From: Pilatotrama ljubarskyi
Lineage: Eukaryota; Basidiomycota; Agaricomycetes; Polyporales; Polyporaceae
Length of the DNA: 64,000 nucleotides
Direction of reading: 5' to 3'
Assembly: GCA_022385805.1 (NCBI GenBank)
Contig: MU277685.1
Coordinates: 460,644 to 524,643, forward strand
Shown here: positions 11,102 through 19,616 of the stretch, one piece after another
How the letters are laid out: each line of letters opens with the position of its first letter
Position numbering within the stretch: the first letter of the stretch is position 1
Made by a program: the position numbers and the translations under genes
Notes under the pieces: model-generated
Seen by the model: only the letters and a program-made list of their open reading frames with translations
Databases searched by the model: none
Told to the model about the DNA's origin: nothing

Positions 11102-13124
<2,023 letters not shown>

Positions 13125-13183
13125 GATGGTTGAGGGGGGAGAGATGGGGGAGAGATGGAGAGACGGCGAGGGCCAGACGCCTC

Positions 13184-13192
13184 TTATATACC
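13184..13192 (-). promoter_or_regulatory. TATA box of phosphoglucomutase
   Basis: The sequence GTATATAAG on the minus strand lies about 60 bases upstream of the phosphoglucomutase ATG and is followed by a C/T-rich leader. This is the pattern of strongly expressed fungal genes. Confidence 0.6.
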
Positions 13193-13297
13193 TCTCCCCC
13201 CGCCTATGACGCACGTTGTCCTCCTCCCGATTGGGCGAACCCCGTCACATTCGCGTCAGGTCACATTATTGCCCATCGCGTGTATGACGTGACGCAG

Positions 13298-13306
13298 TCA
13301 GTCACC
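13298..13306. repeat. target-site duplication, left
   Basis: TCAGTCACC, repeated exactly at 19608-19616 just outside the right terminal repeat. Confidence 0.9.
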
Positions 13307-13404
13307 TAGTCTCGTGACCAGACGTTCGGAGCGCGAATCGGAGATGAAAAATCGGGTGTTGCCGCGCTCCTGAACGTCTGGTGGCAAACCCCCCGTGACT
13401 CCCC
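13307..13404 (+). repeat. 98-bp terminal inverted repeat, left
   Basis: This is the exact reverse complement of 19510-19607 over all 98 bases. It starts TAGTCTCGTGACC. Inside it, 13318-13335 and 13363-13381 form an imperfect inverted repeat (18 and 19 nt, one extra base, 27-nt loop), so each terminus can fold into a hairpin. Confidence 0.95.
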
Positions 13405-13550
13405 GCTCGGTGACATTTGTGACTGCCCTCCCTCTCGTTCTGCTTCCCCGACATCGCCGAGCAACGCGTTCGCACACGGCCACTTGCACGAGTCTTCCAT
13501 AGCTTCCGTATCACCGGCCTCGCTTTCCCATTCCCAGCAAATCTTGCATC

Positions 13551-16500
13551 ATGGCACCGGCCTCCTCGCGGCTGTACTCGCATGAAGAAGAGCTCGCCCG
13601 CTCCTACAAAGTCCTCCAAGCCGCACGAGACATGGCCACAAGCAAACGCAAGTACGACTCCTCCGCCACGCGCAGCAAGATGGTCGCCGAGTTCCAGGCG
13701 CGCACAAAGGGGAAGGTGCCTTATGAGTGGCAGGTGGATGTAGCGGAGGCGTTGCTGCTCGGAGTCGACTGTACGGTGATTGCGGGTACGGGGTCAGGAA
13801 AGACAATGCCATTCGTCATGCCTGCCTTTGTAGAACGCGAGAAAGTATTTTTCGTTATTTCTCCCCTGAATGCTCTCGAGTCAGACCAAGTGAGATCATG
13901 AACAATGAGCGGCATGCATGAAGACCAGAACTGACAGAGGCATAACACGGAGACAGGCATCGCGGTTCGCAGCGTTGGACGTTTGTGCTGCGGTATTGAA
14001 TGGGGAGACATTTACGAAGATGCTGCTGGAGGTATGTACTAGGACTCATACTTTGCATACTGGCTATGCGCTCATCTTCGGGACACAGGACATACAAAAA
14101 GGAAAATATCGCATAGTTCTCACCTCACCAGAGATGACGCATAACCCGGACTTCCAAGGCGTTGTAAAGACTCCATCCTTTGCGAAGAAGATTGGTGCAT
14201 TCATTATCGACGAGGCACACTGCATCACGCACTGGGGCACAGAATTCCGGCCAGAATACAGCACCCTCGAACATCTGCGGTCATTCGTGCCGTCACAGGT
14301 CCCCATCCTCGCAACATCTGCGACATTGACGCCCGCCGTGTTGGCGGAAGTGCGCAAACAGTTATGTATACGACCGGCCCACTCTTTCCATCTCAACCTC
14401 GGGAACGACCGATCGAACATCCGGCAAGGAATGCGGTATATGAGGTCCGCGAGCGATTACAGCGCGTTGAATTTCATGGTGGAGGGCGCCAAAAATCCCG
14501 AGGACTTACCCCGCGCTCTCGTGTTTGTCAACGCCATCCAGAAATGCCATGCGGCCGCGCACCATTTGCGAGGACTTGTGGACGAGCATTTACGCAACTG
14601 CGTTGGCGTATTGCACGCAAAGCAGGGCAGCTTGACAAAAGAAGATGAATGGCGGCGGTTCCGGGACGGTCACATACGTATCTTAGTCGCAACTGAGGCG
14701 GCGGGGATGGTGAGTGATCCTGGACGATGGTGAGCTTGGGACCTATACTGAGGCAGAACCACGTACGGACAGGGGATGGACGTACCCGATATTACACTAA
14801 TTGTACAGTTCGGAGTTCCGGAGACGCTGGCAGTCTGGCTGCAACGAGCTGGCCGAGCGGGACGTTCACGATCCATCCAGGCCTGTGCAATCATGCTTGT
14901 CCAGTCGTCGGTCACGCAGAAAGTAGAAGCCCGCGACGCGCCAAACGAATCCGAGTCCGAGTTCGAGGAAGCCGAGGAGAACATGGACTCGGAATTGTCA
15001 GCAGTGAAGAGCCGGCCCAGGACGAAGTTCAAGAAGAACATTGAGGACGGTCTGAGAGCGTGGATCGAGACGAAGGGATGTCGACGTCGTGTGGCGGATG
15101 CCTACTTCGATAACCCACCACGTAGCGCCAGTATGTAACTGGCGCCTCCTTTCGACAGTGCACTGCCGTGTGCTCACCGTGGTTCTCTCTCGCCCTCATG
15201 CAGTCCATCGCCCACACCAATGCTGTGACAACTGCTCTATGGACGCCACCCCTAGCCAGCCTGCAAACACGCCCTCTACCCATACCAAGCCCGAGTCCGA
15301 CTCGTCTACTTCGAGCTCGACCACGTCGACTCCAGATGTTCAAGCTCAAGGCGACAGCACCTCGGGGCCTCAGGTTGAACAGGACGACCAGACGAACTAC
15401 GGTGATGGAGCTGGTGAGGGCGACGAGGGGCAGGAACGGTCCGGCGAGGCTCTGGTGAGTGCCAGTGTGGTGAGTTGCAGTACCGTATTTATGCTAAAGG
15501 GTTCGCAGGCTTCCCCCGGCGGGCCCTCTTCGTCAGCCAACACGACATCTCAACAGTCTCCGAAGAGACGCACAGGCGACCATCTGAAGAACGTGAAAGA
15601 ACAACTTCGAGCGTGGCGACGCGACACGCGCCGCAAAGTGTACAAGCATACTTCGCTGAAGGCCGACAATATCCTGCCCGAAGCCACTCTCCGAACCATC
15701 GCATCCCAGCGCCGCAGCGTCAAGACCGTCGAGGACCTGAAGACGATCCTCAAGCCGCCGTGGCCGTTTGTCGAGGTCCATGGGGATGAGATCTTGCATC
15801 TCGTCAAGCGGCTCAACGAGGAGTACGACAGTCAGCGTCGAGCGGCGACTCTGGAGGCTAGGGAGAACCGGAAGCTGGCAACACAACAACGCAAGGCTGA
15901 AGCCGCGGCCATCAGCAGGCTCAGAAGGACACCGAGAGGTGGCGTAAACAATGGGCGCAGGCCCTCGCAAGCTACCAGGGACCGTTGGGTCCCTCAGGTG
16001 CGCTCAATGCGCCGGCCGCTCGTGTGCTAGTACCACCCACAACTCCCCGTCATCCCTCTGCGCAGCGACCCGGAGACTCAATTGCCAGTAACGCGAATCC
16101 TTGTCCCCCCCACATGTCGCCATTCTCGCCCAGTCCCCACGCATTTCAAGCAGCCCCGCCCGCAACTCCCCCCCACACAGGTCAGCGTACACCGTCGACG
16201 CAATTGTACTATTCATACTACCCATACTACTACAGCCCGCCTTCAATGTCACCGGTTCAATCTCAAGCTCTCGCTGCGTCTCCTTCCTCTTCCTCTTCCC
16301 ATCCCTCGGCCCCCTCTCCCTATGGAGGTTTGACGTCTGTGGGGTCTCCGTCATTCTCACCGCCACATGCCTGGCCCCTCCACCCACCATCCGAGCCCAC
16401 TGCTTCTCGTCAATCGCCTTCGTCACCTGTGCCCGCCTCATCAACAGAGTCCATCCCTACACACGCCCATGCTCGGCCGCCGTCGTCGCTGCTCCAACAG

Positions 16501-16659
16501 CCGCTGCCGACACCAGCACCCCTGCTGTCGACGTCATCGTGGTCGCCCGGTCTTCACTCTTCAACGACATCCTCTCTGCCACCCTCAGGCTCTCATGGCC
16601 CGGGTCCCCATTATGACCCTCCATCACCGGCTAAGCTGCCCCAGCAGCCTGAACAGTAG
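13551..16659 (+). CDS. RecQ-like DNA helicase of the transposon, apparent frameshift near the 3' end
   Basis: Exons are 13551-13889, 13957-14031, 14089-14709, 14773-15130, 15204-15454 and 15509 onward, all GT-AG. Helicase motifs follow in order: motif I AGTGSGKT, motif II DEAH (IIDEAHCITHWG), motif III SAT, ATEAAGM joined by splicing to GMDVPDI, and motif VI QRAGRAGR. A CCDNC cluster resembles the RecQ zinc site. A helical tail follows (LKNVKEQLRAWRRDTRR). Near 15900-15920 the coding frame shifts by one base: read in the first frame the protein stops at 16030, while the other frame continues (KDTERWRKQWAQALASYQ) through an S/P-rich tail to 16659. I see no usable intron there, so this is a one-base indel or an assembly error. 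The helicase core is intact. Likely role: unwinding DNA during transposition. Confidence 0.82.
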
Positions 16660-19442
16660 GCGAGTCCACGCCCACTGGCTGTGAAGGTATGGGCTCTGCA
16701 GCCAGCGTCGGCGACCAGACCTGCGCTGCGTGTGCTCATAGATTATGCGCCTCTGCCACCACTTCGGTAAGATCGTCCTGGCTGCGACGTTGAATCCCTC
16801 GCTTACAAACTCCTTGAAGTCGTCAGCAGAGCCCTTCGTGACCGTTCGTCCTGGTTGATACTCGTGTACTTCGGCGGCTTCGTAAAAGTCCTCGAGGTGC
16901 TTGACGTCGGCGTCCTTTGAGGGGTTGGTGTGCCTGGTCCCGCGATAGATGCTTCGAAACTGACGTGTGATCTCTTCATCGACAGCTCGCAGGAGCGGTA
17001 TCGCAGGCGCACGAGCCTTCATCAAGTCCCATGACGCATTGGGACCTTTGGGCCGGTAGGTCACCTTCACGTCCTTGATTGTATGCTCCTGAACAAGGTC
17101 GATTGCTTGAAAGTCCTCCGCACCACCTGTCAAGTTGACCAACCAGCAGTTCTGCCGCACGAAGTCTCTGAGATCGTCGTAAGTGCTCCCATGTCTTAAC
17201 CGCTGGATCAACATACTCACTTTACTTCGGGTGTCCATTCCCGGTGCAGGCCCTGTAGCAGCTCTAGGATCTCGACCGCGTACTTGTGGTTCCCGCCGCC
17301 TGAGAATTGGAAGAATAGGTGGGGAAGGAGGTCTTCCATCATCCCAATGTCCCCGCGCTGCATCGCCTGGTGGAGGAGGAGGTAGTAGAGTGCATCGCGG
17401 TTCCACATGACCGCGTGCCGCAGCACGTCATCTTCCTGGCCGTCCATCAGCATCTCGAGGTCTTCGACGGCATCGTTGGATGCATGCCGAAGCACGAGCT
17501 CTTCTGCAAGCGCCTTCAATTCTTGTGGCGAATGCCTCCGAAGATCTGCCAGCTTCTCCACCCCGCCGACCTTCTTCCAGCATGCGCGCAGATGGGCTTC
17601 AGTGACGTGTTCGATCCCTTCGTGTAGGTCGTGATAGAAGACCCCCTTGATCTGGACATGCTGTAACCCCTTCCTTTTCAGGTGAGCGAATGCTTTGCGA
17701 AGGCCGTGTCCTGATGTCGTGCCGAAGTACTGTCGGTGTAGGGAATTGGCAAATGCCATGAGCAAGTGGAACCAGCCAAACACTGTGACAAGCCAGTCGA
17801 GCCTATCGAAGCCGTTCAAGTCCTCGCAGCGATAGTTCGCCAGCCCTCGTAAGCGGTCGACAGTGAGCTGGTCCCCAATCCAGAAGCAGACACGTTCGAG
17901 GCCGGTACGTTTATGTTCCTCGGGACTGTCGAGCTTGAGTTGATGCATCCACTCCGTGATCAGGTCGTCCGTGCCCTCGTAGCTCGACTCGTCGATATGT
18001 ACAGTTCCGAGTACATACTGCTTGGTGATGTGTTCTGGGCCATGTGGAAGGGCGTTGATGGGTGGGGGACGTGCGAGAGCTGGGTCCTCGCGGTGCTGAT
18101 AGGTTGCAAAGTCGAACTCGGGGGCATCAAGCAAAGCCTGAAGGACAAGATGAACAATGTGTGTGTGTATGTGAGGTGCAGCAGCGACCTCGAGAGCAGT
18201 GATGTCGGCGAGTGTTATAGGATTGAGACGTCCGACTCTGCGCTGCTCTTGGAGAGCGGCACTCGATATTGGCGCGGGGGCCGGAGCATTTGGTTTGACG
18301 AATACAGAACCTGCGGTGCCTGAGTCAAAGTGGGACTGGTTGGTGAGGCGTTGGGCGAAGACACGGAACGCGAAGTTCACGTTGTCATATGCTAGCCACC
18401 ACGCAAGGAAGTGAATGACCTTTTGCAAGTCGGCCATTGCACTTGCTGAGATCCCAGCATATGCTCGGACACTCCAGCTGTGGCTCATGGTGATTCCCAG
18501 CACGTGCAGCAAGTCGAGTGCCTTAGCCGATGTCCCTTTCGCCTTCAAGAACACCGTAAGAGGCTTCGTCCATGCCGTGAGGGATCGGGAGCGCATGTAC
18601 TGTAGCTGACTGAGCATCATCACAGCGGCCTGCCGGTGTGCGATCATCAATGGGAGACTTCAACACCTCCGAAGACTAAATGCACTCACAAAACTTGGAT
18701 TCTTGCAGGAATTGCTACAGTCCTGCAGCGACGGCTTGTGCATCCTCTTCATTGCGCCAGTGAGGAGCGACCACAGAGTCGGGGCTCCAGAGGGACTATC
18801 CAGCTTGCTTGCCGCTCCAGCAAAGTTGAAGCTCGTCAAGGCAGCTTGGGAGAGGCTCTCCTTGGAGGAGCGGAATAGTGGTGCAGTGGCCTCGAGTTCT
18901 CGGTCGATGATTTCAGCCACACAGCTTGTTGCAAAATCCTCAAGAGCCTTGCGGGCACCGTTCGGACGAACATGGTGGTGGCGAGAAGTCGATGCACGGG
19001 GAACCTTGTGCCACCGCGCGAGGATCTGAGGAAGCTCCTCGCTGACCATTAAGGCGGTACGTTCGTACTGCACCTTCGGGTTTGCGATACATGCATCGTC
19101 TCCCCAGCTGAGAGCATCAAGAAAAATCGGTAGATTCATATCGAGCGACTCCATGTATCTGAGGATCTTGACAACGCGCTCAACCTTGCTAGCGGACCCG
19201 AGTCGCTCGCGGAGGACGCGAGTGTTGTGCAGATGCGGAGGCTCCTGACGTGCGTCCTCCTCAATCTCGACAGGCTCCCAGTCCGAATCGTCAGACAGAC
19301 GGTCGCTTTCGTAGCCGCCAGATGGGGGAAGATAGTCATTGTCATCGTCATCATAGCCGTCATCGAAGAGCGCGCCCCATCCATTGTGAAGCTCGTCTTG
19401 ATGGTCTTCAGCAAGGCCTTCGGCTTGAGCTTGACCGCCCAT
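16624..19442 (-). CDS. DUF6589 protein, candidate transposase
   Basis: Exons are 19442-18690, 18629-17221 and 17167-16624; GT-AG introns; 901 aa, frame closed. The N terminus is acidic (DDGYDDDDNDY). The central and C-terminal parts match my memory of DUF6589, a repetitive Agaricomycete family: GWFHLLMAFANSLHRQYFG, then WNRDALYYLLLHQA, then GGGNHKYAVEILELLQGLH, then QEHTIKDVKVTYRPKGPNAS. Possible RNase H-fold acidic residues are D464 (HIDESS), D504 (IGDQLT) and E704 (YAVEILE). A His at about 539 falls after the second Asp, where Mutator-type transposases have a C/DxxH motif. This assignment is my inference. The 3' end overlaps the convergent helicase frame by 36 bases. Its ATG lies only 67 bases from the right terminal repeat. 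Confidence 0.85.
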
Positions 19443-19509
19443 AGGCGCGCAGAAGAAGCAGCTCGGGGTACTCGGAGAAGAGTGGGAACGTCACACAAAG
19501 TCACCGCGA

Positions 19510-19607
19510 GGGGAGTCACGGGGGGTTTGCCACCAGACGTTCAGGAGCGCGGCAACACCCGATTTTTCATCTCCGATTCGCGCTCCGAACGTCTGGTCAC
19601 GAGACTA
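19510..19607 (-). repeat. 98-bp terminal inverted repeat, right
   Basis: Perfect inverted copy of 13307-13404, with the same internal hairpin. It lies just upstream of the DUF6589 gene and probably contributes to its promoter. Confidence 0.95.
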
Positions 19608-19616
19608 TCAGTCACC
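19608..19616. repeat. target-site duplication, right
   Basis: TCAGTCACC, identical to 13298-13306. Confidence 0.9.

What the first reader, a model, noticed from the sequence alone, without database searches (positions are those of the whole stretch)
13298..19616. Complete two-gene transposon: DUF6589 protein plus RecQ-like helicase between perfect 98-bp inverted repeats
Boundaries are unambiguous in the sequence: 98 of 98 bases match between the termini, and TCAGTCACC is duplicated on both sides. The interior holds two convergent genes that account for nearly all of it, and no known transposase family is recognisable. DUF6589 proteins are repetitive in Agaricomycetes (known to me) without an assigned role. 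Here one lies inside a clean mobile unit with a helicase partner, which suggests a transposon superfamily with a two-protein machinery.
Basis: partly seen in the sequence, partly recalled or inferred. Interest (0 to 1): 0.88.

Follow-up and report, generated by a model that had tools for sequence, protein, structure and literature searches.

The report
AcademH-type jumping gene in a fungus
A wood-decay fungus carries a cleanly delimited jumping gene made of a likely DNA-cutting enzyme (until now labelled "DUF6589, unknown function") and a DNA-unwinding helicase; it very probably belongs to an already described transposon lineage (AcademH), and its main value is that it gives this unknown protein family a likely job.

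Summary
A 6,301-bp unit (13307-19607) has perfect 98-bp inverted ends and a 9-bp target duplication. It encodes, convergently, a 901-aa DUF6589 protein and a RecQ-family helicase. It is not a one-off: the genome (Pilatotrama ljubarskyi by protein names) has 8 DUF6589 loci found; 7 lie beside a related helicase, and 4 show both ends plus a 9-bp duplication (three perfect, one 8/9). Three of the other four run into contig ends; one shows no ends. Ten short derivatives share the ends; their duplications read 9 bp (4), 8 bp (4, one imperfect) or none (2). In other species at least 35 of 107 named DUF6589 proteins share a contig with a related helicase. DUF6589 proteins have a confidently predicted RNase H-like fold with a helical insertion, whose best structural matches are Hermes and P element transposases, and a conserved D333/D504/E748 triad. 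So DUF6589 is very probably the transposase of a cut-and-paste element and the helicase an accessory. Helicase-bearing elements with 9-10 bp duplications are already described as AcademH (Kojima 2020, seen only through citing papers): a new member of a known kind. I found no paper naming DUF6589.

The parts
13298..13306 (.). target site duplication, left copy (TCAGTCACC)
   Evidence: 9 of 9 identical with 19608-19616
13307..13404 (+). left terminal inverted repeat, begins TAGTCTCG; perfect for 98 bp, 97% to about 13423
13317..13382 (+). palindrome inside the left terminal repeat; mirrored at 19532-19597 in the right one
   Evidence: folds as single strand at -22.8 kcal/mol against -12.25 (sd 2.11) in shuffles, 0 of 200 as good; of 10 ends of related elements folded (this one included) 8 have z below -2, 2 do not
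13551..16030 (+). RecQ-family superfamily 2 helicase gene; my exons 13551-13889, 13957-14031, 14089-14709, 14773-15130, 15204-16030 (739 aa); Walker A GTGSGKT, DEAH, QRAGRAGR, CCDNC zinc motif, weak HRDC
   Evidence: the annotated protein P0121 (letters) has the same start and end but other introns (656 aa)
16624..19442 (-). DUF6589 (PF20231) gene, 901 aa; exons 18690-19442, 17221-18629, 16624-17167; proposed DDE transposase
   Evidence: identical letter for letter to P0001; fold; triad D333/D504/E748
19510..19607 (-). right terminal inverted repeat, perfect for 98 bp
19608..19616 (.). target site duplication, right copy (TCAGTCACC)

Best explanation
This is a complete cut-and-paste DNA transposon of the AcademH kind. 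The DUF6589 protein is its DDE transposase: it would bind the palindromic 98-bp ends, cut them with a two-metal D333/D504/E748 active site and join them to target DNA with a 9-base stagger, leaving the 9-bp duplication. The RecQ-family helicase made by the second gene is an accessory that most likely unwinds the ends or the gapped product, or helps repair. Shown: the anatomy, the recurrence of both genes with the same ends and duplications, and low amino-acid against silent change in both genes. Inferred from predicted structure and conservation: that DUF6589 is the catalyst. Inferred only: the order of steps and the helicase's role. Recent movement is indicated for related short derivatives (three copies about 99.8% identical at different sites), not for this copy.
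Confidence: 0.85

Rival explanations
1. A separate transposon superfamily: DUF6589 transposases arose apart from Academ and acquired a RecQ helicase independently, as KolobokH did.
For: KolobokH shows that RecQ helicases join other fungal transposons (PMC9587614 passages). No sequence link from DUF6589 to an Academ reference was made here; Pfam names DUF6589 only. A subfamily with 8-bp duplications departs from the cited AcademH range.
Against: The cited AcademH hallmarks (helicase, 9-10 bp duplication, presence in Basidiomycota) are matched by this copy; no other described superfamily known to me combines them.
Confidence: 0.1
2. A Mutator-like (MULE) element: long ends and 9-bp duplications are typical of that superfamily (recalled).
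Against: Pfam lists no MULE or Transposase_mut domain at E<=1 in the 901-aa protein; Hermes and P element rank above ISCth4; a helicase partner is not a MULE feature (recalled).
Confidence: 0.03
3. The helicase is the mobilising enzyme (Helitron-like or other) and DUF6589 a passenger.
For: Both genes are regular partners.
Against: Inverted ends with staggered target duplications are the mark of DDE cut-and-paste, not of rolling-circle transfer (established knowledge); the helicase is RecQ type, not the PIF1 type of Helitrons (recalled); DUF6589 has the predicted transposase fold and triad.
Confidence: 0.02

Closest known systems
AcademH lineage of the Academ superfamily (Kojima 2020; seen only through citing papers)
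   Same: Helicase-encoding DNA transposon, 9-bp target duplication, reported from Basidiomycota; RecQ helicase reported in Academ
   Different: Some related copies here read as 8-bp duplications; sequence kinship of the transposase to Repbase Academ not tested; gene order and palindromic ends not compared
KolobokH (RecQ-helicase Kolobok of fungi, PMC9587614 passages)
   Same: DDE transposase with RecQ helicase in fungi
   Different: Helicase lies downstream of the transposase domain there; here a separate gene on the opposite strand; Kolobok duplicates TTAA (recalled), here 9 variable bp
hAT (Hermes) and P element
   Different: Identity 6-11% in the structural alignments; mostly 9-bp duplications; helicase gene
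Plavaka elements of the same genome
   Same: Agaricomycete transposons (class recalled)
   Different: Own Pfam model PF18759, which does not hit the DUF6589 protein

Membership tests
AcademH | DDD/E transposase | tested here: met
   Predicted fold and conserved D333/D504/E748; in silico only
AcademH | encodes a superfamily 2 (RecQ) helicase | tested here: met
   (recQ_fam 1e-56, below its curated cut-off)
AcademH | 9 or 10 bp target site duplication | tested here: met
   This copy 9/9; of 14 elements 7 are 9/9, 1 is 8/9, 4 read as 8 bp, 2 none
AcademH | no XPG-type nuclease (recalled mark of AcademX) | tested here: met
   Pfam scans of P0001 and P0121 list none at E<=1
AcademH | transposase groups with Repbase Academ transposases | not testable with these tools
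   No Academ reference sequence at hand; key papers not held
KolobokH | TTAA target duplication (recalled) | tested here: not met
[quoted passage not shown]
   Separate convergent gene; definition from PMC9587614 passage
MULE/Mutator | MULE-type transposase domain | tested here: not met
   Pfam scan of the 901-aa protein lists DUF6589 alone at E<=1
Plavaka | Plavaka transposase domain PF18759 | tested here: not met
   Pfam scan; the model matches 75 stretches in the genome, none of them in this element
hAT | 8-bp target duplication (recalled) | tested here: not met
   9-bp in this copy; four of 14 related elements do read as 8 bp

The most novel reading that the evidence does not exclude
DUF6589 defines a transposase superfamily distinct from Academ that recruited a RecQ helicase on its own, and whose palindromic 98-bp ends are unwound by that helicase into cruciforms or hairpins for recognition, with the cleavage stagger able to shift between 9 and 8 bases among subfamilies.
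Probability: 0.1. Interest if true: 0.65.

Novelty: new member of a known kind. Interest (0 to 1): 0.38.

Why it matters
It gives a large 'unknown function' family of mushroom-forming fungi (PF20231; 205 and 432 relatives in two searches that may overlap) a testable role as a DDE transposase, and tells annotators that many of these genes and their RecQ-like neighbours are likely mobile elements, not host genes. Copies with intact frames and perfect ends, and near-identical short derivatives, make the question of what a RecQ helicase does for a cut-and-paste transposon directly testable.

Tried and rejected
Considered and rejected: KolobokH (no TTAA, separate gene), MULE (no domain), Plavaka (model does not hit), Helitron (inverted ends, RecQ-type helicase). 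A 23-kb copy on contig C25 first looked like a cargo-carrying giant element; part of the extra length is a Plavaka transposase region, and 6.9 kb of it (C25:154000-160899) was not read, so cargo is not excluded. C123's apparent 44-bp ends proved to be the inner part of longer ends, C64's likewise, so the first boundaries were replaced by those.

Led nowhere: scan of viral contigs with the DUF6589 alignment gave no relative; plasmids no match; viral fold library no match at E<=0.001; Foldseek on PDB no match at E<=0.001. Literature: 'DUF6589' in 0 papers; 'PF20231' in 4 papers whose listed titles and abstract openings look unrelated and which I did not open; 'Academ' with 'XPG' 0. Papers seen only as passages: PMC10799480, PMC10045372, PMC9587614, PMC12210899, PMC3627910, PMC8290104, PMC9970103, PMC4455052. 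Kojima 2020 itself: nothing seen beyond its title in reference lists.

Rows dropped: one search used the 110 named rows of the 120 listed (10 without organism or contig left out), 3 of them Pilatotrama; it matched contig length only, and I compared the organisms by eye afterwards (37 of 37 agree). I mistyped the contig length of one row there (P0091), which changes nothing since neither value is in the helicase list. One search used 34 of the 37 matches (three with two candidate helicases left out; two of the 34 are Pilatotrama). Alignment A1 used 84 of the 120 listed proteins (partial or closely similar ones left out by choice); one search added 71 of 120 from the second search (820-1180 aa only). 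Single or partial ends at C17, C53, C7:676k, C51 and C58 are not among the 14 elements; C58 was not fetched. A few of the ten 90-base pieces folded start one base before or three bases after the element end.

Full report
What is there. The unit is exact at the stated place. The inverted ends are identical for 98 bases (13307-13404, 19510-19607), and TCAGTCACC is repeated directly outside them. Between them lie two convergent genes. The minus-strand gene (three exons, 901 aa, no internal stop) agrees letter for letter with P0001, a protein named for Pilatotrama ljubarskyi (taxonomy). Pfam calls residues 387-800 DUF6589. The plus-strand gene is a RecQ-family helicase: its best solved relatives are BLM, WRN and RecQ, NCBIfam's recQ_fam model matches at 1e-56 though below its cut-off, and RecQ zinc-binding and HRDC matches below their cut-offs follow the motor.

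It is a family, not an accident. The genome has 17 DUF6589 stretches, which group into eight loci (the tool calls such counts lower bounds). A search with the largest helicase exon found seven places at E<=1e-10, and each lies beside a DUF6589 locus; the eighth locus (C158) ends at a contig end. A broad RecQ model lists 41 stretches; those on contigs without DUF6589, such as C14, C2 and C61, are presumably host or other helicases and are not among the seven hits. Five of the seven pairs are convergent and two (C64, C112) divergent (coordinates), so gene order changed while the ends stayed alike.

Ends and duplications. I located both ends of 14 elements and tabulated flanks. Four are DUF6589-helicase elements: C16 (6,301 bp, 9/9), C64 (8,153 bp, 9/9), C25 (22,977 bp, 9/9, ends identical over the 190 bases compared) and C38 (6,181 bp, 8/9). 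Ten are too short for both genes (189-1,556 bp): C93, C21, C90 and C26 have 9/9; three 1,349-bp copies on C38 and C7 have 8/8; C29 has 7/8; C12 and one C7 copy have none. Of the other four DUF6589 loci, C112 has both inverted repeats but the right one stops at the contig end, C123 has its left end and runs into the contig end, C158 is cut by the contig end, and C38:30k shows no ends. In one search all 28 ends begin T(A/G)G-N-CTCG, and 25 of 28 carry CCAG by base 17. In 8 of 10 ends folded, the first 90 bases or so hold a palindrome that folds better than shuffles with z below -2; two do not.

The three 1,349-bp copies are 99.8-99.9% identical to one another and keep an N-terminal helicase fragment (57% identical to residues 22-82 of P0121), which ties these short elements to a helicase-bearing parent. 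Their near-identity at three sites with different flanks is the best sign of recent movement.

Other species. Two searches found 205 and 432 relatives at E<=1e-3, of which the best 120 each are listed; the named ones listed are, as far as I recognise the genera (not looked up one by one), Agaricomycetes. More distant relatives would not show in such lists. Nine of these are on contigs under 100 kb; three are on contigs of 5.3, 6.3 and 8.4 kb, so both genes must lie close together. Locus tags are consecutive in Trametes cubensis (g5810/g5811) and Agrocybe chaxingu (g10340/g10341) and two apart in Trametes cinnabarina (g5/g7). Pairwise distances of 34 pairs correlate (r=0.845, none of 9,999 permutations), as expected for linked genes, though shared species history contributes. 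Between the C16 and C38 copies non-synonymous change is well below synonymous change in both genes (pN 0.16-0.27, pS 0.67-0.81, synonymous change saturated in three of four exons).

Mechanism, with its basis. Staggered joining by 9 bases follows from the duplications. DUF6589 as catalyst is inferred from fold, triad and regular presence. A helicase acting on ends or on the gapped product is inference; the palindromic ends suggest a substrate for it but nothing here tests that.

Comparison with the known. Papers citing Kojima 2020 say that AcademH makes 9 or 10 bp duplications and AcademX 3 or 4 bp, and relate this to their helicase and nuclease (PMC10045372 passage), that AcademH has been found as a low-copy element in Basidiomycota, Ascomycota and Mucoromycota (PMC10799480 passage), and that a RecQ helicase in Academ was reported earlier (PMC3627910 passage). 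That the AcademX nuclease is of the XPG type is recalled. The present copy fits on every feature I could test; four related short elements read as 8-bp duplications and do not. The one missing test is sequence kinship with a Repbase Academ transposase. I therefore file it as a new member of a known kind, at 0.85, with the added point, for which I found no paper, that PF20231 covers most of the transposase's catalytic region.

Noticed in passing
window 13124-13306: The element lies 174 bp upstream of an ATG at 13124 (minus strand) that I take, from recalled N-terminal sequence, as the start of the phosphoglucomutase-like gene whose PGM_PMM domains lie in the ORF 11818-12816, i.e. in or near the promoter of a housekeeping gene.
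   Followed up: partly
window 15880-16659: The helicase reading frame stops at 16030, but an overlapping frame (15901-16659) continues a charged, then low-complexity tail; a frameshift or unrecognised intron in this copy is possible. Motor domains are unaffected.
   Followed up: no
L054, L055, L056 (C38:176609-177957, C7:297916-299264, C7:162688-164036): Three nearly identical 1,349-bp elements with about 195-bp inverted ends and a helicase fragment, with 8-bp instead of 9-bp duplications.
   Followed up: yes
C25:138124-161100 of the genome (L041, L042, L057): A 23-kb DUF6589-helicase element with matching ends and a 9-bp duplication; a Plavaka transposase lies inside (stretches 147861-149076), and 6.9 kb of it was not read, so other cargo is possible.
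   Followed up: partly
source names: DUF6589 proteins of Ganoderma boninense are named 'Type 1 capsular polysaccharide biosynthesis protein J' and 'PRP28 RNA helicase' (P0099, P0255), and some helicases related to the transposon's are named 'bloom syndrome' (e.g. P0175, P0179): apparent annotation errors.
   Followed up: no
C51:224915-225000 (L030): A solitary end related to the C16 terminal repeat (81% over 86 bp), without a partner end found in the 10 kb read.
   Followed up: partly
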